NCBI GenBank assembly: GCA_937923365.1
Contig: CALAIJ010000307.1
Location: 1 to 10,227 of the forward strand
Direction: 5' to 3'
DNA: 10,227 nt
Source of the DNA: an uncultured Sulfitobacter sp.
GTDB taxonomy: Bacteria > Pseudomonadota > Alphaproteobacteria > Rhodobacterales > Rhodobacteraceae
Shown here: in pieces, positions 1,778 through 10,152 of the stretch
Layout of the letters: each line of letters opens with the position of its first letter
Numbering within the stretch: the stretch's first letter is position 1
The notes under the pieces: model-generated
What the model saw: only the letters and a program-made list of their open reading frames with translations
Databases searched by the model: none
What the model was told of the DNA's origin: nothing
Program-made: the position numbers and the translations under genes

Positions 1778-2602
1778 ATGACAGATACCCCGAATGATAC
1801 GCCCCGCGCGGGTGACCGCATCGCCAAAGTCCTTGCCCGCGCAGGTGTCGCCAGCCGCCGCGAGGCGGAACGCATGATCGAAGCGGGCCGCGTACGTGTG
1901 AACGGCGACCAGATATCCTCGCCCGCGTTGAACGTCACACCTCAGGACGTGATCCTTGTGGACGGCAATCCCGTGTCGGAGCCCGAGCCTGCGCGCATGT
2001 GGCTGTATCACAAGCCATCGGGGCTGGTGACAACAACCCGTGATGAAAAGGGCCGTGGCACGATCTATGACGATATGCCCGCTGACATGCCCCGCGTGAT
2101 GACTGTGGGCCGTTTGGACCTGAACTCAGAAGGACTGCTGCTGCTGACCAACGACGGCGGCATCAAGCGCAAGCTTGAACTGCCCTCGACGGGCTGGCTG
2201 CGCCGCTACCGCGCGCGGGTGAATGGCCGCCCCGAAGACAAAACACTGGAGCCTTTGCGCCGTGGCATCACCGTGGACGGAGAGCGTTTTCAGCCGATGG
2301 AGGTCACGATTGACCGCCAGCAAGGCGCGAATGCCTGGCTGACGGTGGGCTTGCGCGAGGGCAAGAACCGCGAAATCCGCCGCGCGATGGAGCATGTCGG
2401 ATTGAGCGTGAACCGCCTGATCCGCGTGTCATACGGGCCGTTCCAACTGGGCGAGCTCAAAGCAGGCGCCGTCGAAGAAATCCGCCGCAAAATTGTCCGC
2501 GACCAATTGGGCATGGAAATCGAGACCCCCGTGGGCACCGCCAAGGCAAAACCCAAGCCTGCCAACCGGTTTTCGAAAAAACGCCCGCAAAAGCGCCGCT
2601 GA
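1778..2602 (+). CDS. rluB: 23S rRNA pseudouridine synthase, RsuA/RluB/RluE family
   Basis: This 274-residue protein has an N-terminal S4 RNA-binding domain (about residues 13-60: RIAKVLARAGVASRREAERM and VRVNGD) and an RsuA-type pseudouridine synthase domain (about 75-235). The catalytic motif GRLDLNSEGLLLLTNDG starts at 111, with the nucleophile Asp114. The family's second motif, EGKNREIRRAMEHVGL, lies at 194-209. The expected product is pseudouridine at the position equivalent to E. coli 2605 in helix 93 of 23S rRNA; RluB is the best guess within the family because RsuA and RluE share these motifs. The tail (about 255-274) is Lys/Arg/Pro-rich and probably disordered. The ATG at 1778 has AGAGG upstream and begins just before the S4 domain; longer in-frame versions would run antisense through tadA. 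Confidence 0.92.
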   Translation: MTDTPNDTPRAGDRIAKVLARAGVASRREAERMIEAGRVRVNGDQISSPALNVTPQDVILVDGNPVSEPEPARMWLYHKPSGLVTTTRDEKGRGTIYDDMPADMPRVMTVGRLDLNSEGLLLLTNDGGIKRKLELPSTGWLRRYRARVNGRPEDKTLEPLRRGITVDGERFQPMEVTIDRQQGANAWLTVGLREGKNREIRRAMEHVGLSVNRLIRVSYGPFQLGELKAGAVEEIRRKIVRDQLGMEIETPVGTAKAKPKPANRFSKKRPQKRR

Positions 2603-2663: not shown

Positions 2664-2867
2664 ATGAACCCGATACTTTTTCTTGCCGCGATCATCGCCT
2701 GCGTCTCCGCGCTTTACGCGCTTTATCTGGGCAGCCGTTCGGTGCGTCCGATGCTGAACGCATTTATGGCGTTGGGCCACAACAGCGACACTCTGCAAGC
2801 GCGGGTGTTTCCCATGCTGGCCTTTCTGGGCCTGCTGGCGATCTTGCTGAAACTCACCATATTCTGA
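2664..2867 (+). CDS. Small membrane protein, 67 aa, function unknown
   Basis: The product is a 67-residue, two-helix membrane protein. Hydrophobic segments cover about residues 3-23 (ILFLAAIIACVSALYALYL) and 48-66, joined by a short polar stretch with Arg25, Arg28 and the AFMALGHNSDT segment. AAGG lies only 3 bases before the ATG, a short spacing. An in-frame extension to 2493 would overlap rluB and adds basic, non-membrane sequence, so it is rejected. Its TGA (2865-2867) overlaps the Shine-Dalgarno GAGGA (2866-2870) of the xpaC-like gene that starts 10 bp downstream, which suggests coupled translation and a shared role. I do not recognise the family. Confidence 0.78.
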   Translation: MNPILFLAAIIACVSALYALYLGSRSVRPMLNAFMALGHNSDTLQARVFPMLAFLGLLAILLKLTIF

Positions 2868-2877
2868 GGACGGCGCG

Positions 2878-3765
2878 ATGACCCCATTTGAACGTATCCA
2901 GCGCAACAAGGGCATGCAGGCCTTTGCCTTCGAACATGAAAAACCGGCCACGCCAACAGCCCCATTTCCGCGAAACGTCAGTGGATTGACCGTCCTTGTC
3001 CTTGCGATCACGCCGTTGATGTACAAAGCGATGTTGGCCCCGACGGCTGAAAACATTGTGGGCTACGGCGGGCTGACGGCCTGCTTTGGTCTGGCGCTTT
3101 GGTCGATGGCAGCAGGTCTCAAGGCCGAAGCTATCTATGACGCGGCCCCCGTGGCCCGCGCCCCTGCCCGCCCGCGCAAGATGGTTGGTGCAGGTCTCAT
3201 GGGCCTTGGTGCTGCGGGTCTGACATGGTTTCAGGGCGGCGACATTTGGCAAGCGGCCAGCGTGATGGTGGTCACCACCCTTTTGTGCGCCGTGGCCTTT
3301 GGCCGTGATCCCGGCCGCCATAAGGGGTTCGAGACGGTGCAGGCCCGCCAATCCCACAAGATCGATGATCTGACCGCCCGCACGGGTCTGTTGATGGAGC
3401 GTGTCCGCGAAGCCGCCGCCATCCACGGCGACCGCGATGTCATGCCCCGCGTGCGCGCCTTTGACGATGCGGTGGACGCCCTGCTGAGTGCCGCAATGCA
3501 TGATCCGGCCCGTGTGGGCGCGTTGCGCAAGTTCTTTGGCGTCTATCTGGAGAGCGCGGCCGAAGCTTCCGAACGGTTTGCCGCCGTCTATTCCGGCACG
3601 GGCGATCCGCAAGCCAAGCAAAAGCATCTGGATTTGCTGGAAAAATTAACCGATGCCTTTGGGGCCAAGGCACATGATTATGCAGCGGCAGGCCAGATCA
3701 AACTGGATGTAGAGCATGAAGTTCTGACCACCGCTCTTAGTCAGGAACTGCGCCGCGCTACCTGA
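2878..3765 (+). CDS. XpaC-family membrane protein, copy 1
   Basis: This 295-residue protein belongs to the family labelled '5-bromo-4-chloroindolyl phosphate hydrolysis protein' (XpaC). The label comes from a B. subtilis phenotype, and no enzymatic activity is established. The N-terminal half has four likely membrane helices (about 34-53, 60-81, 102-119, 123-142), then a cytosolic helical region. It shares with copy 2 (4886-5764) the block GL.AEA.Y.A..VAR.PA.PRK (about 80-101), the AFG.DP...KG.E turn (140-151) and the region F.GVYL..A..A..F...YS.T.D.QA (220-246). In copy 2 the spacing is the same, so they are true paralogs. In B. subtilis xpaC sits next to yaaN (TelA family); a telA gene follows here too, after copy 2. 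Role inferred: membrane partner of TelA in stress response. Confidence 0.85.
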   Translation: MTPFERIQRNKGMQAFAFEHEKPATPTAPFPRNVSGLTVLVLAITPLMYKAMLAPTAENIVGYGGLTACFGLALWSMAAGLKAEAIYDAAPVARAPARPRKMVGAGLMGLGAAGLTWFQGGDIWQAASVMVVTTLLCAVAFGRDPGRHKGFETVQARQSHKIDDLTARTGLLMERVREAAAIHGDRDVMPRVRAFDDAVDALLSAAMHDPARVGALRKFFGVYLESAAEASERFAAVYSGTGDPQAKQKHLDLLEKLTDAFGAKAHDYAAAGQIKLDVEHEVLTTALSQELRRAT

Positions 3766-3900
3766 GCGACCAACGTCCCAGTTGCCAGCCCTGCCTGCAG
3801 TGGGCAGCAACTGCGCAAATTTTCCCCCTCGTCAGACATTCACATTGACCCCCGAACCGCCTAAGAGGTTGTGCCAAGACAAGGCACCACGGGGACACCA
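3766..3900. other. Intergenic gap between xpaC copy 1 and terC
   Basis: At 135 bp this is the longest gap inside the central cluster and probably a transcriptional break. It contains an imperfect hairpin (3781-3811) near the xpaC end and the terC ribosome binding site GGGGA at 3891-3895. A TTGACC at 3845-3850 resembles a -35 box, but I see no acceptable -10 at 16-18 bases from it, so a terC promoter here is plausible but not shown. Confidence 0.4.
3781..3823 (+). terminator. Possible weak intrinsic terminator after xpaC copy 1
   Basis: GTTGC (3781-3785) pairs with GCAAC (3807-3811) and GCCC (3788-3791) with GGGC (3802-3805), leaving small internal bulges (CA against A) and a loop of about 10 bases. 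A TTTT run follows at 3820-3823, 8 bases beyond the stem, farther than ideal. The position, 16 bases after the stop codon, fits a terminator or attenuator. The uneven stem and distant T run keep this tentative. Confidence 0.35.
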
Positions 3901-4719
3901 ATGACTGAACTGCTGACAATCGAAAATCTCGGAAACCTGATCATGCTCTGCTTTTTGCAGGCTGTGCTGGGGTTCGATAACCTTTTGTATATCTCGATCG
4001 AAAGCCAGCGTGCGCCCGTTGCGCAGCAGTCTGCAGTGCGCAAATGGGGCATTCTGATCGCGGTGGCCCTGCGGATTGTGCTGCTCTTCACTATGATCCA
4101 GTTGATTGATGCCATGGCCGAGCCGTTCTTCATCCTCAACTGGGAAGGTGTGCTGGAAGGTGGCGTGAACTTTGCCACGCTGGTGTTCATCATCGGTGGT
4201 GTCTTCATCATCTATACCGCCGTGAAGGAAATCAGCCACATGCTGGCGATTGAACACCTAGATACGGATGTGGAGCACAAGTCCGGCAAGTCCGCCGCGC
4301 AGGTGGTCATGCTGATCGTCTTTATGAACCTGATTTTCTCATTCGATTCAGTGCTTTCCGCGCTGGCCATCACGGATGTCTTTATCCTTCTGGCCACGGC
4401 GATCATCCTGTCGGGTCTGGCGATGCTGTTGCTGGCCGACAGTGTCACGCGGTTCCTGGAAGCCAACCGGATGTACGAAGTCCTTGGCCTCTTCATCTTG
4501 CTGATCGTGGGCATCGTGCTTTTGGGCGAAGCGGGTCAGGCGGCCTCTCACGCGATGCATGATCCTGATCTGGCGCTTAAATTCTTCGGCTACGAAGTGA
4601 TCCCGATGTCAAAGACCACCTTCTATTTCTCGGTCATCGTGCTGGTCGCGGTGGAGATCATCCAGTCCGGTTATACCCGCAAATTGAATGCAGAACGGCG
4701 GACAGGCACCAAGCATTAA
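3901..4719 (+). CDS. TerC-family integral membrane protein
   Basis: This 272-residue protein is a TerC-family transporter-like membrane protein with about seven helices (roughly 10-32, 48-70, 91-111, 134-156, 159-181, 193-214, 238-257). The family's acidic intramembrane motifs are present: GFDN at 24-27 and FSFDS at 146-150, which place Asp residues within the membrane, as expected for metal-ion binding. The cytosolic loop around 115-132 is charged (EHLDTDVEHKSGKS). Family members were named for tellurite resistance; Alx and Bacillus homologs are linked to manganese export. Which ion moves here cannot be read from the sequence. The ATG at 3901 has GGGGA 5 bases upstream; the GTG at 3871 would add 10 polar residues before the first helix and is less likely. 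It lies between two xpaC paralogs on the same strand. Confidence 0.9.
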   Translation: MTELLTIENLGNLIMLCFLQAVLGFDNLLYISIESQRAPVAQQSAVRKWGILIAVALRIVLLFTMIQLIDAMAEPFFILNWEGVLEGGVNFATLVFIIGGVFIIYTAVKEISHMLAIEHLDTDVEHKSGKSAAQVVMLIVFMNLIFSFDSVLSALAITDVFILLATAIILSGLAMLLLADSVTRFLEANRMYEVLGLFILLIVGIVLLGEAGQAASHAMHDPDLALKFFGYEVIPMSKTTFYFSVIVLVAVEIIQSGYTRKLNAERRTGTKH

Positions 4720-4730
4720 CCTAGCGAAGG

Positions 4731-4744
4731 TGCACAGAAGTGCA
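4731..4744 (+). repeat. Small perfect inverted repeat between terC and the 29-aa ORF
   Basis: TGCAC (4731-4735) and GTGCA (4740-4744) form a 5-bp stem around an AGAA loop, 11 bases after the terC stop. A second short pair, ATGTT (4746-4750) with AACAT (4762-4766), follows. Neither has a T run, so a terminator is unlikely; an operator, an mRNA processing site or chance are all possible. Confidence 0.3.
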
Positions 4745-4780
4745 TATGTTAGCGCAGCCCCAACATTTGCGGCGCATGGA

Positions 4781-4788
4781 AAGGAAGG
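4781..4788 (+). promoter_or_regulatory. Strong Shine-Dalgarno for the 29-aa ORF
   Basis: AAGGAAGG precedes the ATG at 4793; its AAGGA core lies 7 bases away, near the ideal spacing. It is one of the best ribosome binding sites in the window, and it is the main reason to treat the tiny ORF as translated from 4793 and not from the in-frame ATG at 4688, which lies inside terC. Confidence 0.6.
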
Positions 4789-4792
4789 CCTG

Positions 4793-4882
4793 ATGGCCCC
4801 GTCAACTTTGCAGAAACTCAGCTATGTGGCGTTGATCATTGTGATGTTCGGCACTGCCACCGGCTGGCTGGGAGGGCTCTAG
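4793..4882 (+). CDS. 29-aa single-helix membrane microprotein, function unknown
   Basis: This 29-residue peptide has a short polar start (MAPSTLQK) and one hydrophobic helix (about residues 10-28: SYVALIIVMFGTATGWLGGL). Helix-breaking glycines and a Trp near the end resemble small regulatory membrane peptides. The ribosome binding site is strong. Its last codons (Gly-Gly-Leu-stop) contain GGGAGGG (4870-4876), which acts as the Shine-Dalgarno for the next gene, whose ATG lies only 3 bases after the TAG. That makes translational coupling with xpaC copy 2 likely. Automated annotation would easily miss it. It could be a leader peptide or a subunit of the XpaC/TelA or TerC membrane complex. I do not know a named family. 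Confidence 0.65.
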   Translation: MAPSTLQKLSYVALIIVMFGTATGWLGGL

Positions 4883-4885
4883 GCC

Positions 4886-5764
4886 ATGGCGAAGCGGTAT
4901 GGCGGCAAGCACAGCCCTGACGGATCAAGCCAGAACACGCCTTTGGAGCGGGTCGAGGTTGATCCCGTGGGCGGGCGCGCAAATGTTCTGTTCATTCCTG
5001 CGATTCCGCTGGTGGCGACCTCGTTCAACGATGGCGCGCTTAGCCTTACGGCTGCGCTGATCGGCGCAGGTGTCTGGACACTGGCTGCATGGCTTCTGCG
5101 CGAAGGTTTGCAGGCGGAGGCCGAATACAACGCCCGCAAAGTCGCCCGCCGCCCTGCCTTGCCGCGCAAGATCATCTCAAGCGTGCTGACGGGTGTAGGC
5201 ACCGCCTTTGCCGTGCTGGCGCATCTTAACAGCTTGGGCGACATTCTGGCGCCTGTGCTTTTTGGTCTGATCACCTCTGGCCTGCATGTGGCCGCGTTTG
5301 GTCTTGATCCGCTCAAATCCAAAGGCATGGAGGGCATCGACACCTTTCAGCAAGACCGCGTCGCCCGCGTGGTGGACGAGGCGGAAAAGCATCTGTCAGC
5401 CATGTCTGACGCTATCCGGCGCTCCAATGACCTGACAGCAGCCAAGCGACTGGGCAAGTTCCAGCACACCGCCCGCAAGCTTATTCGCACGGTCGAGGAA
5501 GACCCCCGCGACCTGACAGCCGCGCGCAAATATCTGGGCGTCTACCTGCGCGGCGCGCGTGACGCGACGGCCAAGTTTGCCGACATCTACAGCCGCACCC
5601 AGGACGTGCAGGCCCGCGACGATTATATCGCGCTGTTGGATGATCTCGACCAGAACTTTGCCGCGCGCAATACCAAATCCCTGCTGGAAGATCGTGGCGA
5701 TCTGACAGTGGAAATCGACGTGCTGCGAGAGCGGCTTTCCCGTGAAGGCGTGCGCCTTGAATAG
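4886..5764 (+). CDS. XpaC-family membrane protein, copy 2
   Basis: This 292-residue paralog of the gene at 2878-3765 has the same architecture: a hydrophilic N-terminus (about 1-32), four hydrophobic segments (about 34-46, 52-72, 95-115, 118-140), then a long helical cytosolic part with heptad-like stretches. Shared landmarks are REGLQAEAEYNARKVARRPA (72-91), AFGLDPLKSKGME (137-149) and KYLGVYLRGARDATAKFADI (215-234). The C-terminal end (about 265-292) is acidic/basic, with RERLSREGV. The ATG at 4886 is supported by GGGAGGG at 4870-4876. It lies 43 bp before telA, with AAGGAG between them, so it is the copy directly paired with TelA, as XpaC is in B. subtilis (xpaC-yaaN). Biochemical function is unknown; a membrane platform for TelA is my inference. 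Confidence 0.87.
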   Translation: MAKRYGGKHSPDGSSQNTPLERVEVDPVGGRANVLFIPAIPLVATSFNDGALSLTAALIGAGVWTLAAWLLREGLQAEAEYNARKVARRPALPRKIISSVLTGVGTAFAVLAHLNSLGDILAPVLFGLITSGLHVAAFGLDPLKSKGMEGIDTFQQDRVARVVDEAEKHLSAMSDAIRRSNDLTAAKRLGKFQHTARKLIRTVEEDPRDLTAARKYLGVYLRGARDATAKFADIYSRTQDVQARDDYIALLDDLDQNFAARNTKSLLEDRGDLTVEIDVLRERLSREGVRLE

Positions 5765-5807
5765 CGCCACCCGACCCTTCACCCAATACTTTAAGGAGCC
5801 AGAGTAA

Positions 5808-7004
5808 ATGTCAGAAACTGTTCGTGAAAAAGCCGCTCAGTCTATCGCCCTTGTGGACGAGGTCAACGCCGTGATCCTGCCCGAGCCTGTGGACGCAAAC
5901 GCCATCGTACCGCTGTCGGAAGCCGACAAGCCACTGGGCGCCGAGATCAAGGCGCGCATGGCAGAGATCGATATGAGCGACACGCAGTCCATCGTCTCTT
6001 TCGGGTCTGGCGCGCAAGCCGAATTGCAGGAAATCAGCCAAGCAATGTTGCAAGACGTGCGCAACAAGGATGTCGGCCCCGCGGGTGACAGCCTGCGCTC
6101 CATCGTGACCACGATCCGTGGCTTCTCCGTCTCTGAGCTGGACGTGCGCCGCAAGCGTTCATGGTGGGAGAAACTGCTGGGGCGCGCCGCACCTTTCGCC
6201 AAGTTCACCGCCAAGTTCGAAAAGGTCCAAGGCCAGATCGACCGCGTCACCGACAACCTGTTGAACCACGAGCATACGCTGCTGAAAGACATCAAGTCGC
6301 TGGACATGCTCTATGAAAAGACACTGCAGTTCTACGACGAACTGGCACTTTATATTTCTGCAGGCGAAGCAAAGCTGGCCGAGCTGGACGACAAGACAAT
6401 CCCCGCCAAGGAAAAGGCCGTCAGCAAGGCGAAGGAAGCCGATCAGGTCATGGTCGCGCAAGAGCTGCGTGATCTGCGCGCTGCCCGCGACGATCTGGAG
6501 CGCCGTGTGCATGATCTGAAACTCACCCGTCAGGTGACGATGCAGTCCCTGCCCTCCATCCGTTTGGTGCAGGAAAACGACAAGAGCCTTGTCACCAAGA
6601 TCAATTCCACGCTGGTCAACACCGTTCCGCTTTGGGAAACCCAGCTGGCGCAGGCCGTCACCATCCAGCGTTCTGCCGAAGCCGCAACTGCCGTACGCGA
6701 GGCCAACGATCTGACCAACGAGTTGCTGACCTCCAACGCCAAGAACCTGCGCGAGAGCAACAAAATGATCCGCGAAGAGATGGAGCGCGGTGTCTTTGAC
6801 ATCGAGGCCGTCAAGCAGGCCAACGCCGATCTGATCGGCACCATCGAGGAATCGCTTCAGATCGCCGACGAAGGCAAGGCCAAGCGCGCCGCAGCCGAGG
6901 TGGAACTCAAAGAGATGGAAGCCAAATTGCGCGACACGCTGGCCTCTGCCAAAGCCAAGAAGACCGGCCTTGGCGATACGGCCTCCGGCGCGGTTCCCGG
7001 CTAA
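5808..7004 (+). CDS. telA: Toxic anion resistance protein, TelA family
   Basis: The product is a 398-residue, mostly helical cytosolic protein of the TelA family (KlaA/YaaN relatives), at typical length. After a variable N-terminus (about 1-55) come a segment with RKRSWWEKLLGR (115-126), which could contact membrane, and long coiled-coil helices (about 135-245, with LLNHEHTLLKDIKSLDMLYE at 151-170). The family signature region is SLPSIRLVQENDKSLVTKI (247-265), followed by NTVPLWETQLAQAV (271-284), the equivalent of the IPLWK.Q motif. Further helices extend to 380 and the tail is short and disordered. Family members are linked to resistance to tellurite and to other envelope-acting agents, but the mechanism is unknown. 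AAGGAG at 5793-5798 lies 9 bases before the ATG. It ends 5 bp before the lipoprotein gene, so the two are coupled. Confidence 0.93.
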   Translation: MSETVREKAAQSIALVDEVNAVILPEPVDANAIVPLSEADKPLGAEIKARMAEIDMSDTQSIVSFGSGAQAELQEISQAMLQDVRNKDVGPAGDSLRSIVTTIRGFSVSELDVRRKRSWWEKLLGRAAPFAKFTAKFEKVQGQIDRVTDNLLNHEHTLLKDIKSLDMLYEKTLQFYDELALYISAGEAKLAELDDKTIPAKEKAVSKAKEADQVMVAQELRDLRAARDDLERRVHDLKLTRQVTMQSLPSIRLVQENDKSLVTKINSTLVNTVPLWETQLAQAVTIQRSAEAATAVREANDLTNELLTSNAKNLRESNKMIREEMERGVFDIEAVKQANADLIGTIEESLQIADEGKAKRAAAEVELKEMEAKLRDTLASAKAKKTGLGDTASGAVPG

Positions 7005-7009
7005 ACCTG

Positions 7010-7984
7010 ATGCGGGGGCTGGGGCAAAAAGCGGCACGATGGACCACCACGCTGGCATGCGTGGTGGGTCTGGCCGCGTGTACGGCGTCAGCCCCCGTTT
7101 CGCCCACGCTCAAGCCGCCGTCGAACCGTCCGGCCCCTGCCAAACCGCCCAAGCCTGCGGCAAAACCGCAGGTCGCCAATCCCACAAGCCAGAAAAGCGC
7201 CAGCCTGCGCAGCTATCTCAATCAGGTGCAGCGTGCACAACTGACCCAAGGCCTGCTGCGCCGTGATGGCGGCGGGGCTGATACGCCTTATACCGCCGAC
7301 GTATTGGCCCGCAATTTCGAGCAGATCGCGTTTTTCAACGAATATAACGGCACCTTTACCGGTCGTGGTGGGGCCAGCCCGCTGCGTCGTTGGTCGGCAC
7401 CCGTGCGCATGCAGGTGATCTTTGGCGCAGGCGTGCCACCGTCGCAGCGGAATGCCGACGGATTTGCCGTCTCGCAATATGCAAACCGTCTGGCGCGGGT
7501 CACAGGGCACCCTGTTTCAGCCACCGGCACGCCCAATTTCATTGTGATCATCGCAGGCGAAGACGACCGGACGGAGGCTTTGCAGACGGCTGCACAGCGG
7601 ATACCCGGCATCTCGGACACGTCTTTGCGCGCCCTGCGCGACATGCGCCGCGACACTTATTGCGCGGTGGCGGCCTATGCCGCCGGTCCTAATGCAAACA
7701 CCTATACTGCCGCTGTGGCCGTGATCCGGTCGGAAAATCCCGATCTGTTGCGCCTGTCTTGCATTCACGAAGAACTGGCTCAGGGGTTGGGACTGGCCAA
7801 CGACAGCCCCGCCGCGCGGCCATCGATCTTCAATGACGATGACGAGTTTGCCTTGCTGACCCGCCATGATGAGCAATTGTTGCGCATGCTATACGACCGC
7901 CGCTTGCGCACAGGGATGACAGCGGCGGAAGCACGGCCAATCGTGCGCACCCTTGCGCGGGAAATTGCTGGCGGGCCGGTCTGA
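7010..7984 (+). CDS. DUF2927 domain lipoprotein
   Basis: This 324-residue protein begins with a basic N-terminus, a hydrophobic stretch and the lipobox GLAAC (Cys24), so it should be a lipoprotein anchored on the periplasmic side. A Pro/Lys/Ala-rich linker (about 28-58) follows, then the globular domain. The C-terminal half has the landmarks I associate with DUF2927: YCAVAAYA (217-224), CIHEELAQGLGLANDS (251-266), then PSIFNDDDEFALLTRHDEQL (271-290) and LYDRRLRTGM (294-303). The HEE (253-255), ND (264-265) and His286 residues recall metalloprotease helices, but the spacing is not HExxH. It starts 5 bp after telA with no clear Shine-Dalgarno of its own, suggesting coupled translation. Function unknown; DUF name assigned from memory of the motifs. 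Confidence 0.82.
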   Translation: MRGLGQKAARWTTTLACVVGLAACTASAPVSPTLKPPSNRPAPAKPPKPAAKPQVANPTSQKSASLRSYLNQVQRAQLTQGLLRRDGGGADTPYTADVLARNFEQIAFFNEYNGTFTGRGGASPLRRWSAPVRMQVIFGAGVPPSQRNADGFAVSQYANRLARVTGHPVSATGTPNFIVIIAGEDDRTEALQTAAQRIPGISDTSLRALRDMRRDTYCAVAAYAAGPNANTYTAAVAVIRSENPDLLRLSCIHEELAQGLGLANDSPAARPSIFNDDDEFALLTRHDEQLLRMLYDRRLRTGMTAAEARPIVRTLAREIAGGPV

Positions 7985-7992
7985 TCCGGTGC

Positions 7993-8373
7993 TCAGGCCG
8001 CAGCCTGACGGCGCGACAGATACACAAACAGCAGCCCAAGTGCTGAGGGCACCATCTGTACAAGGCCCGGTTTCAACGCGACGGTAACTGCCGCACCAAG
8101 ACCTGCAACAAAGACGAACAACAGGAAACAGGACGCAATCCGCGCCTGCCACTTCACGTCCGCAATGAACAGAGACCACACAAGGCCCACGCCCAGAAAA
8201 GCGTTGTAAATCCCCTGGTTGGCCGCCATCTGGATCGTTTGTTCAAACAACTCGGGTGGGAAGCTTTCAAAAACCGCCGGCCCGCGCGATGTCCATGCAA
8301 AAATCTCGAACCAGGCAATGTAGAAATGTAGCGCTGCGACCAATGCGATCAGAACAAGTGCGATAGATTTCAT
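7993..8373 (-). CDS. DUF1304-family small membrane protein
   Basis: The product is a 126-residue membrane protein with four hydrophobic segments (about 3-24, 56-72, 79-99, 105-120). It shows DUF1304 features: HFYIAWFEIFAW (16-27) in helix 1 and ANQGIYNAFLGVGL (51-64) in helix 2, with conserved His16, Asn52, Gln53 and Asn57. The function of the family is unknown. The ATG at 8373 is preceded on the minus strand by GGGGGA with 7 bases of spacing; a longer in-frame start at 8403 adds 10 residues with no clear ribosome site. It converges on the DUF2927 gene with 8 bp between the stops and is divergent from the SPFH gene. It probably has its own promoter and may be unrelated to the stress cluster. 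Confidence 0.85.
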   Translation of the reverse strand: MKSIALVLIALVAALHFYIAWFEIFAWTSRGPAVFESFPPELFEQTIQMAANQGIYNAFLGVGLVWSLFIADVKWQARIASCFLLFVFVAGLGAAVTVALKPGLVQMVPSALGLLFVYLSRRQAAA

Positions 8374-8540
8374 CTGTCGTTCCCCCAACCCAAATGCGTC
8401 CACGGCAGTCTCGTCTGTGGCGGGGCGATAATCAACCAGAATGCACGCGGGGCGAATGCAGCGGCCATTTTCGGCCTCCCTTGATAACGCTGGCCCATCA
8501 CAATACTCTGCGCTGAAACCTATGAAAAGGACTGCACCCC
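8374..8540. promoter_or_regulatory. Divergent promoter region, DUF1304 / SPFH genes
   Basis: These 167 bp lie between divergent genes and must carry both promoters. Toward the SPFH gene, TTGATA (8481-8486) and AATACT (8502-8507, spacing 15) or TACTCT (8504-8509, spacing 17) form a possible but poor sigma-70-type pair. AAAAGGA (8525-8531) is the SPFH ribosome binding site, 9 bases before the ATG. No clear operator palindrome was found. Confidence 0.4.
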
Positions 8541-9650
8541 ATGGGCATTTTCGATTTCCTCTCCGGTGAATTCATCGACGTCATCCATTGGGTGGACGAC
8601 ACCCGCGATACCATGGTCTGGCGGGTCGAGCGCGAAGGCCACGAGATCAAGTATGGCGCCAAGCTGACCGTCCGCGAGGGGCAGGCCGCCGTCTTCGTGC
8701 ACGAAGGCCAGTTGGCGGATGTCTTTACCCCCGGCCTGTACATGCTTGAGACCAACAACATGCCGATCCTCACCACGCTGATGCACTGGGATCACGGCTT
8801 TCGCAGCCCGTTCAAGTCCGAGATCTATTTCGTCAACACCACACGGTTCAATGACCTCAAATGGGGCACCAAAAACCCGATCATCGTGCGCGATCCCGAA
8901 TTTGGCCCCGTGCGCCTACGCGCCTTTGGCACTTATTCCGTCAAGGTCAGCGATCCTGCGCGGTTCCTCACCGAGATCGTCGGCACCGATGGCGAATTCA
9001 CCATGGACGAGATCAGCTACCAGATCCGCAACATCATCGTGCAAGAGTTCTCACGCACCATAGCACGTGCTGGCATTCCGGTGCTTGATATGGCTGCGAA
9101 CACCCGCGAGCTGGGGCAATTGGTCGGCCGCGAGATCGCCGCACAACTGGCCGAATACGGTCTGGCAATGCCCGAGCTTTACATCGAGAACATCTCGCTG
9201 CCGCCCGCCGTTGAAGAGGTCATGGACAAGCGATCCTCTATGGGTGTCATCGGAAACCTCAACGAATACATGCAGTTCCAGGCTGCCGAAGCGCTGGGGC
9301 GTGACGGCGCCGGTGCTGCGGCCATCCAGGCAGGCATGGGGGCGGGCCTTGGCATGCAGATCGGCGCACAGGCGGCGGGCCCTTGGGGCGCACGGACCGT
9401 GTCGGCCCCGGCACCTGCGGCCATCGCGCCCCCACCGCCACCTGTCGAGCACGTCTGGCATATTGCGGACAACGGTCAGACAACCGGCCCCTTTTCCAAA
9501 GCCAAGCTGGGCCGCATGGCCGCCGACGGAGAGTTGACCCGCGAGACCTTTGTCTGGACGCCCGGTCAGGACGGCTGGCAAAAGGCCGAGGACGTGATGG
9601 AACTGGCGCAACTCTTTACTGTGCTGCCACCGCCACCCCCCGGGTCTTGA
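8541..9650 (+). CDS. SPFH (Band 7) protein with C-terminal GYF_2-like domain
   Basis: This 369-residue protein belongs to the soluble SPFH group typified by B. subtilis YdjI ('virion core protein-like'). The N-terminus, MGIFDFLSGEFIDVIHW, is amphipathic and not a transmembrane anchor. The SPFH domain (about 25-225) contains REGQAAVFVHEGQLADVFTP (45-64), GLYMLETNNMPI (65-76), LRAFGTYSVKVSDP (126-139) and the helical end YGLAMPELYIENISLPPAVE (206-225). A Gly/Ala-rich stretch (255-284) and a Pro-rich linker (290-301) lead to a GYF_2 (DUF4339)-like domain (about 305-352): WHIADNGQTTGPFS, then TFVWTPGQDGWQKAEDV. Family members often carry zinc ribbons in this place. In B. subtilis ydjI sits with a pspA homolog (ydjF), which links the group to membrane stress. 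The role here is inferred: a membrane-surface scaffold. Confidence 0.9.
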   Translation: MGIFDFLSGEFIDVIHWVDDTRDTMVWRVEREGHEIKYGAKLTVREGQAAVFVHEGQLADVFTPGLYMLETNNMPILTTLMHWDHGFRSPFKSEIYFVNTTRFNDLKWGTKNPIIVRDPEFGPVRLRAFGTYSVKVSDPARFLTEIVGTDGEFTMDEISYQIRNIIVQEFSRTIARAGIPVLDMAANTRELGQLVGREIAAQLAEYGLAMPELYIENISLPPAVEEVMDKRSSMGVIGNLNEYMQFQAAEALGRDGAGAAAIQAGMGAGLGMQIGAQAAGPWGARTVSAPAPAAIAPPPPPVEHVWHIADNGQTTGPFSKAKLGRMAADGELTRETFVWTPGQDGWQKAEDVMELAQLFTVLPPPPPGS

Positions 9651-9726: not shown

Positions 9727-10152
9727 ATGACACGCCGCAGCCTTTCCATTCTGCTGCATTGGGCCGTTTTCATGCTGATCCTGATCATGGTGAAAGGCGG
9801 CGTCTCCGCGCCTTGGGCGCTGTGGTCCTTTGTGGCCGTTGTAACTGTCTGGTCGGGCATGACGCTGGTCTTTGGGCTGCTGGGACGTGCTGGGCCGAAA
9901 CTTTCGCCACGCTGGCGTCGTGCCTACCCTTGGATGCACCGTTCTCTTCATCTCCTCTTGGCGCTGACCGCCCTTGCGATCCTGATGCGCCTGATCGGCC
10001 ACCCCCTATGGTGGCTCGATGCGTGGAGCATGCTGCTGATCACACTTGGCGCTGGCGCCTTTCACGGGTTATTCCATTTCTGGCGCCACAACGCGCTTTT
10101 TGACGGCGCGCTCAAACTGATCACCCCGAAGGTGCTGCACAAATGGCTCTGA
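9727..10152 (+). CDS. Cytochrome b561-like small membrane protein
   Basis: The product is 141 residues with four likely membrane helices (about 6-23, 30-52, 72-92, 98-118). Histidines sit where b-type heme ligands are expected: His11 in LLHW, His71 and His75 in WMHRSLHLLLAL (69-80), His91, and His113 and His117 in FHGLFHFWRH (112-121). This fits the short prokaryotic cytochrome b561 / 'cytochrome b/b6 domain' group, which moves electrons within the membrane, though the protein is shorter than a typical b561 (about 175 residues). The ATG at 9727 is preferred to 9703 because MTRRSL places the usual basic residues before helix 1. Its TGA overlaps the next gene by 10 bases, so the two are co-translated. 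Confidence 0.72.
   Translation: MTRRSLSILLHWAVFMLILIMVKGGVSAPWALWSFVAVVTVWSGMTLVFGLLGRAGPKLSPRWRRAYPWMHRSLHLLLALTALAILMRLIGHPLWWLDAWSMLLITLGAGAFHGLFHFWRHNALFDGALKLITPKVLHKWL

What the first reader, a model, noticed from the sequence alone, without database searches (positions are those of the whole stretch)
2664..7984. Compact XpaC-TerC-XpaC-TelA-DUF2927 membrane cluster with two extra tiny membrane ORFs
Seven + strand genes in a row form a candidate envelope or metal stress module. XpaC-TelA pairing is known from other bacteria (B. subtilis xpaC-yaaN) and TerC belongs to the same broad network. A TerC between two XpaC paralogs, plus a lipoprotein coupled to TelA and two unannotatable-size membrane ORFs, is a richer arrangement than the known pair. 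None of the components has an established mechanism.
Basis: partly seen in the sequence, partly recalled or inferred. Interest (0 to 1): 0.7.

Follow-up and report, generated by a model that had tools for sequence, protein, structure and literature searches.

The report
Envelope-stress operon with hidden microproteins
A membrane-protection gene cluster found in nearly all Rhodobacteraceae sampled carries, in front of its XpaC genes, a tiny and apparently undescribed membrane protein, and its gene order suggests that the poorly understood TelA/XpaC "tellurite" proteins work together with a membrane-organising (SPFH) protein.

Summary
The seven + strand genes are real. The window is a whole contig of an incomplete Sulfitobacter-like MAG. 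The stable unit is not XpaC-TerC-XpaC-TelA but microprotein-XpaC-TelA-DUF2927-SPFH plus, past the contig end in relatives, a zinc-ribbon protein. In 137 Rhodobacteraceae loci XpaC adjoins TelA in 136, DUF2927 follows in 132 of 134, SPFH in 126 of 130 and the zinc-ribbon gene in 116 of 121. TerC (37/129) and a second XpaC (27/129) are optional; both occur in 3 of 129.

The strongest result is the tiny ORF. A small hydrophobic ORF abuts xpaC in 127 of 133 loci by script, against 1 of 550 starts of other genes. One of the 127 (L160) is spurious; the six misses carry the gene on reading, displaced in L020: 132 of 133. pN/pS is 0.31-0.39. The second XpaC has its own microprotein (26 of 27), so the pair probably duplicated as a unit.

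Best reading: an envelope-integrity machine built like B. subtilis PspA-YdjGHI, with TelA as effector and microprotein-XpaC as anchor. Function is inferred.

The parts
2664..2867 (+). microprotein 1 (67 aa, two hydrophobic stretches), partner of XpaC1
   Evidence: a like gene sits in front of 26 of 27 upstream XpaC paralogs; family pN/pS 0.36 over 22 pairs, window versus L023 0.66; 119 database proteins match the family profile, the window's own among them
2878..3765 (+). XpaC1, accessory XpaC paralog
   Evidence: PF10112 26.5 bits, below the curated 29.8; clade of 27 upstream paralogs, support 0.993
3901..4719 (+). TerC, accessory integral membrane protein
   Evidence: PF03741 125 bits; present in 37 of 129 loci
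4793..4882 (+). microprotein 2 (29 aa, one hydrophobic stretch), partner of XpaC2
4886..5764 (+). XpaC2: AF2 model with hydrophobic helices followed by a helical bundle
   Evidence: PF10112 94 bits; AF2 mean pLDDT 84.6; no TM predictor was run
5808..7004 (+). TelA, long-helix protein
   Evidence: PF05816 360 bits; AF2 mean pLDDT 70 with helices 129-207, 210-326, 332-385; telA in 194 of 196 genomes of the order sample
7010..7984 (+). DUF2927 predicted periplasmic lipoprotein
   Evidence: PF11150 212 bits; lipobox-like site in 117 of 133 and HEExxQxxGLxND-type motif in 130 of 133 relatives
8541..9650 (+). SPFH (Band_7_1) protein with C-terminal GYF_2 domain
   Evidence: 333 and 76 bits; follows telA within 4.5 kb in 126 of 130 loci
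7993..8403 (-). DUF1304 membrane protein lying between DUF2927 and SPFH on the other strand; probably an insertion, not part of the module
   Evidence: PF06993 99 bits; a phmmer search of the loci at E<=1e-10 found only the window's own copy

Best explanation
A housekeeping envelope-integrity operon of Rhodobacteraceae that joins two modules which B. subtilis keeps as separate operons: XpaC-TelA (xpaC-yaaN) and zinc-ribbon/SPFH (ydjG, ydjI). Proposed working: (1) XpaC, with hydrophobic helices and a cytosolic bundle, forms a membrane complex with the microprotein translated just before it; (2) this complex, with the zinc-ribbon membrane protein, anchors the SPFH-GYF protein at the inner membrane; (3) SPFH and XpaC recruit the long-helix protein TelA to the membrane when it is stressed, TelA taking the role PspA has in B. 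subtilis; (4) the lipoprotein DUF2927 acts on the periplasmic side; (5) TerC or a second microprotein-XpaC pair are optional add-ons. Gene content, conservation and the microprotein-XpaC pairing are shown; one duplication of the pair is the simplest reading of the tree. The complex, recruitment and stress role are inferred.
For: Core order: XpaC next to TelA 136/137, DUF2927 132/134, SPFH 126/130, zinc-ribbon 116/121. Outside the family, XpaC-TelA-SPFH loci without a DUF2927 hit (L106, L107, L109, L181, L183, L184). SPFH next to a zinc-ribbon gene without TelA/XpaC hits in 6 of 9 loci fetched from other Pseudomonadota. Microprotein: 127/133 by script, 132/133 after reading, controls 1/550; pN/pS 0.39 and 0.31 against 1.0-2.0 in the other frames, pairs of at least 60% nucleotide identity. 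A microprotein before 26/27 XpaC paralogs (looser rule, no control), which form one clade. In five Paracoccus-type loci XpaC is gone and no ATG-started microprotein was seen, while TelA-DUF2927-SPFH-zinc-ribbon remain. Literature: YdjI needs YdjG/H to bring PspA to the membrane, in a sigma-W operon (PMC8581546, abstract and passages); YdjG has a zinc ribbon (PMC9239133, passage); xpaC-yaaN is a core sigma-W operon (PMC3498285, table passages); a lmo1967 (TelA) mutant is nisin-sensitive, as cited in PMC12791056 (passage).
Against: No expression, interaction or phenotype data for this lineage. The AF2 model of microprotein 2 read through into XpaC2 gives the microprotein pLDDT of only about 50-70, so no docking is shown. 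TelA's model is of middling confidence, and neither model has a Foldseek match at E<=0.001. PspA occurs elsewhere in 58 of 196 genomes of the order sample, including this MAG, so TelA does not simply replace it. L160 has XpaC and TelA but no microprotein, DUF2927 or SPFH found; L109, outside the family, shows no convincing microprotein. The zinc-ribbon gene is not next to SPFH in 64 of the 116 loci (200 nt or more away). Its relation to YdjG rests on domain type, not on a direct comparison.
Confidence: 0.5

Rival explanations
1. A metal or oxyanion module: TerC exports manganese or another metal across the inner membrane, and TelA/XpaC protect against tellurite-like anions.
For: TerC lies between the XpaC genes here; family names; in L. 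monocytogenes a telA mutant is two-fold more sensitive to tellurite (cited in PMC12791056, passage).
Against: TerC is present in only 37 of 129 loci; the constant partners are SPFH and zinc-ribbon proteins; the same telA mutant is four-fold more sensitive to nisin; XpaC and TelA genes in Firmicutes belong to envelope-stress regulons (passages).
Confidence: 0.2
2. The tiny ORF is mainly a cis-acting translational leader that sets expression of xpaC by coupling; its peptide does not matter.
For: It overlaps or lies within 5 nt of the xpaC start (distances -4 to +5 in the 127 script hits).
Against: Purifying selection on the amino acids (pN/pS 0.31-0.39); near-invariant residues; longer frames with a second hydrophobic stretch and the same C-terminal helix; the ORF is kept in L020, where an M23-peptidase-like gene separates it from xpaC.
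Confidence: 0.12
3. A Ter-type anti-phage or xenobiotic barrier in which TelA forms a sub-membrane structure.
For: TelA is proposed to form sub-membrane structures in Ter systems (PMC7824862, passage).
Against: No TerB, TerD or vWA family among the ten window proteins scanned; near-universal presence (194/196) is unlike a defence island; the PADLOC library was not searched.
Confidence: 0.1

Closest known systems
B. subtilis / Listeria xpaC-yaaN (telA) operon
   Same: XpaC-family gene directly followed by TelA; in B. subtilis a core sigma-W operon (PMC3498285 passage), in Listeria lmo1966-1967 (PMC12791056 passage)
   Different: In the B. subtilis record viewed (a plasmid copy) no SPFH, zinc-ribbon or DUF2927 gene is listed beside it, XpaC is 204 aa, and the small-ORF script finds nothing before xpaC; that gene table is incomplete by its nature
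B. subtilis pspA-ydjG-ydjH-ydjI
   Same: SPFH (band 7) protein with a zinc-ribbon membrane partner (PMC8581546, PMC9239133 passages; the control finds a Band_7_1 protein in B. subtilis)
   Different: No PspA in the window; TelA, XpaC, microprotein and DUF2927 are added; no YdjH-like gene was identified
ter operon (TerB/C/D/E/F/Z)
   Same: TerC and TelA families occur in both (PMC7824862 passage)
   Different: No TerB, TerD or TerF family among the ten window proteins scanned; TerC is optional (37/129)

Membership tests
TelA (PF05816) | profile match over the curated cut-off | tested here: met
   360 bits against 30
xpaC-yaaN type pair | XpaC-family gene directly upstream of telA on the same strand | tested here: met
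   window, and 136 of 137 loci
xpaC-yaaN type pair | control by an envelope-stress sigma factor | not testable with these tools
   the promoter scan covers only sigma-70 types; both sites it found are on the - strand
XpaC / Halogen_Hydrol (PF10112), XpaC1 | profile match over the curated cut-off | tested here: not met
   26.5 against 29.8 bits; the tree makes it a sister group of the main XpaC, so it is called a paralog, not a Pfam member
XpaC / Halogen_Hydrol (PF10112), XpaC2 | profile match over the curated cut-off | tested here: met
   94.2 bits
PspA-YdjGHI system | PspA encoded in the operon | tested here: not met
   no PspA among the ten window proteins scanned; among genomes listed with both, the closest same-contig pair I compared is about 21 kb apart (G260)
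PspA-YdjGHI system | SPFH (Band_7_1) gene | tested here: met
   333 bits
PspA-YdjGHI system | zinc-ribbon membrane protein near SPFH | tested here: inconclusive
   met in 116 of 121 relatives; the window contig ends first, and the MAG's copy lies near the start of contig C26
ter operon | TerB/TerD-family genes | tested here: not met
   none among the ten window proteins scanned

The most novel reading that the evidence does not exclude
XpaC has a dedicated membrane microprotein as a near-obligatory subunit (one- or two-helix form, duplicated together with it), and microprotein-XpaC plus SPFH plus zinc-ribbon proteins form a membrane platform whose effector is TelA: a second, TelA-based counterpart of the phage-shock system, nearly universal in one major bacterial family.
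Probability: 0.4. Interest if true: 0.78.

Novelty: new variant of a known kind. Interest (0 to 1): 0.6.

Why it matters
TelA and XpaC are widespread families whose mechanism has stayed open; they are named after tellurite and a dye phosphate. Their fixed linkage to an SPFH and zinc-ribbon pair, together with a candidate missing subunit (the microprotein) that the family libraries searched do not hold, gives a concrete testable complex. A purification or deletion study of XpaC in this family that ignores the microprotein may work with an incomplete complex.

Tried and rejected
Rejected: XpaC-TerC-XpaC as the defining unit (3 of 129 loci). Rejected: chance ORFs (controls, frames). Rejected: TelA simply replacing PspA in the family; PspA is over the cut-off in 58 of 196 genomes, including the window's own. 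An early idea of mine that XpaC had been swapped for the zinc-ribbon protein was overturned: both occur together.

Literature: no paper held XpaC, TelA and TerC together and none held DUF2927; the listings showed no paper on this operon or microprotein (titles and starts of abstracts, capped lists). Passages were read in six papers. Subscription papers and most preprints are not in that library.

Dropped before counts and exceptions: 22 short loci overlapping others and 6 duplicates were removed, 13 outgroup loci were left out of the Rhodobacteraceae tables, and three regions gave no TelA hit (L115, L116, L120). Order loci were picked by hand, about one per genus, from a capped list of hits. 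Four of the 137 were not scored: L008, L017 and L045 (start not found or contig edge) and L124 (no XpaC). L160 was a false script hit; L129 and L170 are divergent. L047's truncated paralog lacks a microprotein. The start of many microproteins is uncertain: shorter and longer starts are open in the same frame. In one search the 29-aa set was chosen by a rule that includes its C-terminal glycines, so their constancy there is not a result; the upstream comparison was ungapped. One tree row, L090, is an outgroup locus labelled main by my script and lies outside.
Full report
What is there. The window is the whole of contig C307 of an unnamed, 65%-complete MAG; the nearest TelA relatives are Sulfitobacter. 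A DUF1304 gene on the other strand follows, then an SPFH (Band_7_1) gene with a GYF_2 domain.

Neighbourhood. I fetched 80 loci by TelA similarity (the best 80 of 314 relatives) and further regions from genomes of the class and order samples (for the order about one per genus, picked by hand from a capped list). After removing duplicates and outgroups, 137 Rhodobacteraceae loci remain. XpaC adjoins TelA in 136 of 137 (not in L124); DUF2927 follows in 132 of 134 with at least 1.2 kb of sequence (not L132, L160); SPFH within 4.5 kb in 126 of 130 with at least 3 kb (not L160, L164, L179; in L011 it lies 4.9 kb away). Upstream (129 loci with at least 4 kb): none of this set in 68, TerC in 34, a second XpaC in 24, both in 3 (the window, L023 and L047). 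rsuA lies upstream in 116 of 129. telA is found in 194 of 196 genomes of the order sample, all of one family, but in 19 of 190 of the class sample.

The hidden gene. Directly before xpaC2, 127 of 133 scorable loci have a 20-90 aa hydrophobic ORF by a fixed script; the distance from its stop to the xpaC start is -4 to +5 nt. The same script before telA, DUF2927, spfh, rsuA and terC gives 0/136, 0/131, 1/131, 0/115 and 0/37. The script does not test the sequence. On recheck 124 of the 127 match a profile of the family (built from 37 such sequences, most of them among those tested); L129 and L170 are divergent and L160 is not one. Reading the six others finds it in all: L078, L126 and L176, L148, L149 and L020, in L020 with an M23-peptidase-like gene slipped in between. 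So 132 of 133, with L160, whose neighbourhood is also otherwise aberrant, as the exception. In-frame pN/pS is 0.39 (37 sequences of 29 aa) and 0.31 (23 of 27 aa), against 1.0-2.0 in the other two frames; mean nucleotide identity is 0.63 in the ORF and 0.27 in the ungapped stretch upstream. In a hand-picked alignment of 37, M1 and L14 are invariant and Q7, K8, G27 and G28 nearly so. In about 20 loci the open frame reaches a second, N-terminal hydrophobic stretch (17 of them aligned; one search lists 22, of which L160, L164 at full frame and L004 are doubtful), so a two-helix form of 62-84 aa is likely there, though a short internal start is also open. Database relatives of the long forms carry no Pfam domain except one, and names given are mostly hypothetical protein, with cell division protein FtsX for 7 of the 120 listed. 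Single members touch unrelated Pfam or NCBIfam models weakly (NCBIfam was not run on the microprotein-1 family alignment).

A paired module. Upstream XpaC paralogs also have a microprotein of their own in 26 of 27 cases (a looser window, no control). All 27 paralogs, including the window's XpaC1, form one clade (support 0.993) beside 57 main XpaC (0.891; the mains were thinned from 137); the node joining the two has 0.755, and five outgroup rows plus L090 lie outside. The simplest account is one duplication of the microprotein-XpaC pair. Where XpaC is missing (five Paracoccus-type loci: L124, L203 and three more fetched from L124's genus; probably one loss) I saw no ATG-started microprotein, while TelA-DUF2927-SPFH-zinc-ribbon remain. 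Outside the family, small hydrophobic ORFs before XpaC are seen in L106 and L181 (similar to each other), L107, L183 and L184; L111 is unclear, L109 and L090 show none that convinces, L117 is cut. These were read by eye, without control. Loci with a short XpaC show none, nor does the B. subtilis copy viewed.

The far end. An annotated Paracoccus record shows a zinc-ribbon gene after SPFH. Searching with it finds the gene within 5 kb after SPFH in 116 loci, 52 within 200 nt and 64 further away; 5 lack it, 7 have no room and 9 no SPFH hit (of 137). The MAG's own copy lies near the start of contig C26 (692-1780), which fits adjacency across an assembly break but does not show it. In nine loci fetched from other Pseudomonadota (one of them from another family of the same class) none has a TelA or XpaC hit; six have the zinc-ribbon gene next to SPFH (L194, L196-L200), L201 and L202 have other zinc-ribbon-like proteins nearby by eye and weak Pfam matches, and L195 ends there.

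Mechanism. In B. subtilis the SPFH protein YdjI with the membrane proteins YdjG and YdjH brings PspA to the membrane, from a sigma-W operon (PMC8581546, abstract and passages), and YdjG has a zinc ribbon (PMC9239133, passage). xpaC-yaaN is a separate core sigma-W operon (PMC3498285, passages). Here the two sets are physically joined, with TelA where PspA would be expected. XpaC2 is modelled as hydrophobic helices plus a helical bundle (pLDDT 84.6) and TelA as very long helices (pLDDT 70). I therefore propose an envelope-integrity platform: microprotein-XpaC and the zinc-ribbon protein as anchors, SPFH as adaptor, TelA as recruited effector, DUF2927 in the periplasm. Shown: gene content, conservation, pairing and selection. 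Inferred: complex, recruitment and function. Firmicute data fit: TelA loss makes Listeria nisin-sensitive (cited in PMC12791056, passage), and xpaC is up seven-fold in a liaR mutant of Enterococcus faecium (PMC10269926, passages).

Limits. There are no expression or interaction data. The microprotein is poorly placed in the model (pLDDT about 50-70). Fold searches are inconclusive. Common origin of the two microprotein families is suggestive only. PspA is still present in 58 of 196 genomes.

Verdict. The finding worth keeping is the near-obligatory microprotein and the TelA-XpaC-SPFH-zinc-ribbon linkage.

Noticed in passing
window 7766-7804 (DUF2927 residues 253-265): DUF2927 has a conserved HEExxQxxGLxND-type motif (130 of 133) and two cysteines constant in the alignment. 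Its spacing recalls a degenerate zincin motif (recalled, not tested), so it may be a periplasmic enzyme or an inactive relative.
   Followed up: partly
L020:6406-7082: An M23-peptidase-like gene (by eye) is inserted between the microprotein and xpaC in Tateyamaria omphalii.
   Followed up: partly
G000:C26:692-1780: The MAG's zinc-ribbon gene lies near a contig start, so C26 may follow C307.
   Followed up: no
G000:C182:3697-4689: A second, distant relative (32% identity) of the zinc-ribbon protein in the same MAG.
   Followed up: no
G000:C213:3181-3807: The window's genome also has a PspA-family gene (64 bits).
   Followed up: no
L124, L203, L205, L206, L207: Paracoccus-type loci lack XpaC (and, as far as read, the microprotein) but keep TelA-DUF2927-SPFH-zinc-ribbon.
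   Followed up: yes
relatives of L121:7301-7501 (minus strand): Seven of the 120 listed database relatives of the long microprotein are named cell division protein FtsX by a source, probably a misnomer for a 67-aa protein.
   Followed up: no
window 1778-2602: An RsuA-type pseudouridine synthase gene (name recalled) lies upstream in 116 of 129 loci, a stable but probably unrelated neighbour.
   Followed up: partly
window 9727-10152: A small cytochrome-b561-like membrane ORF (name recalled; no Pfam hit) follows SPFH; in several relatives similar ORFs follow SPFH too.
   Followed up: no
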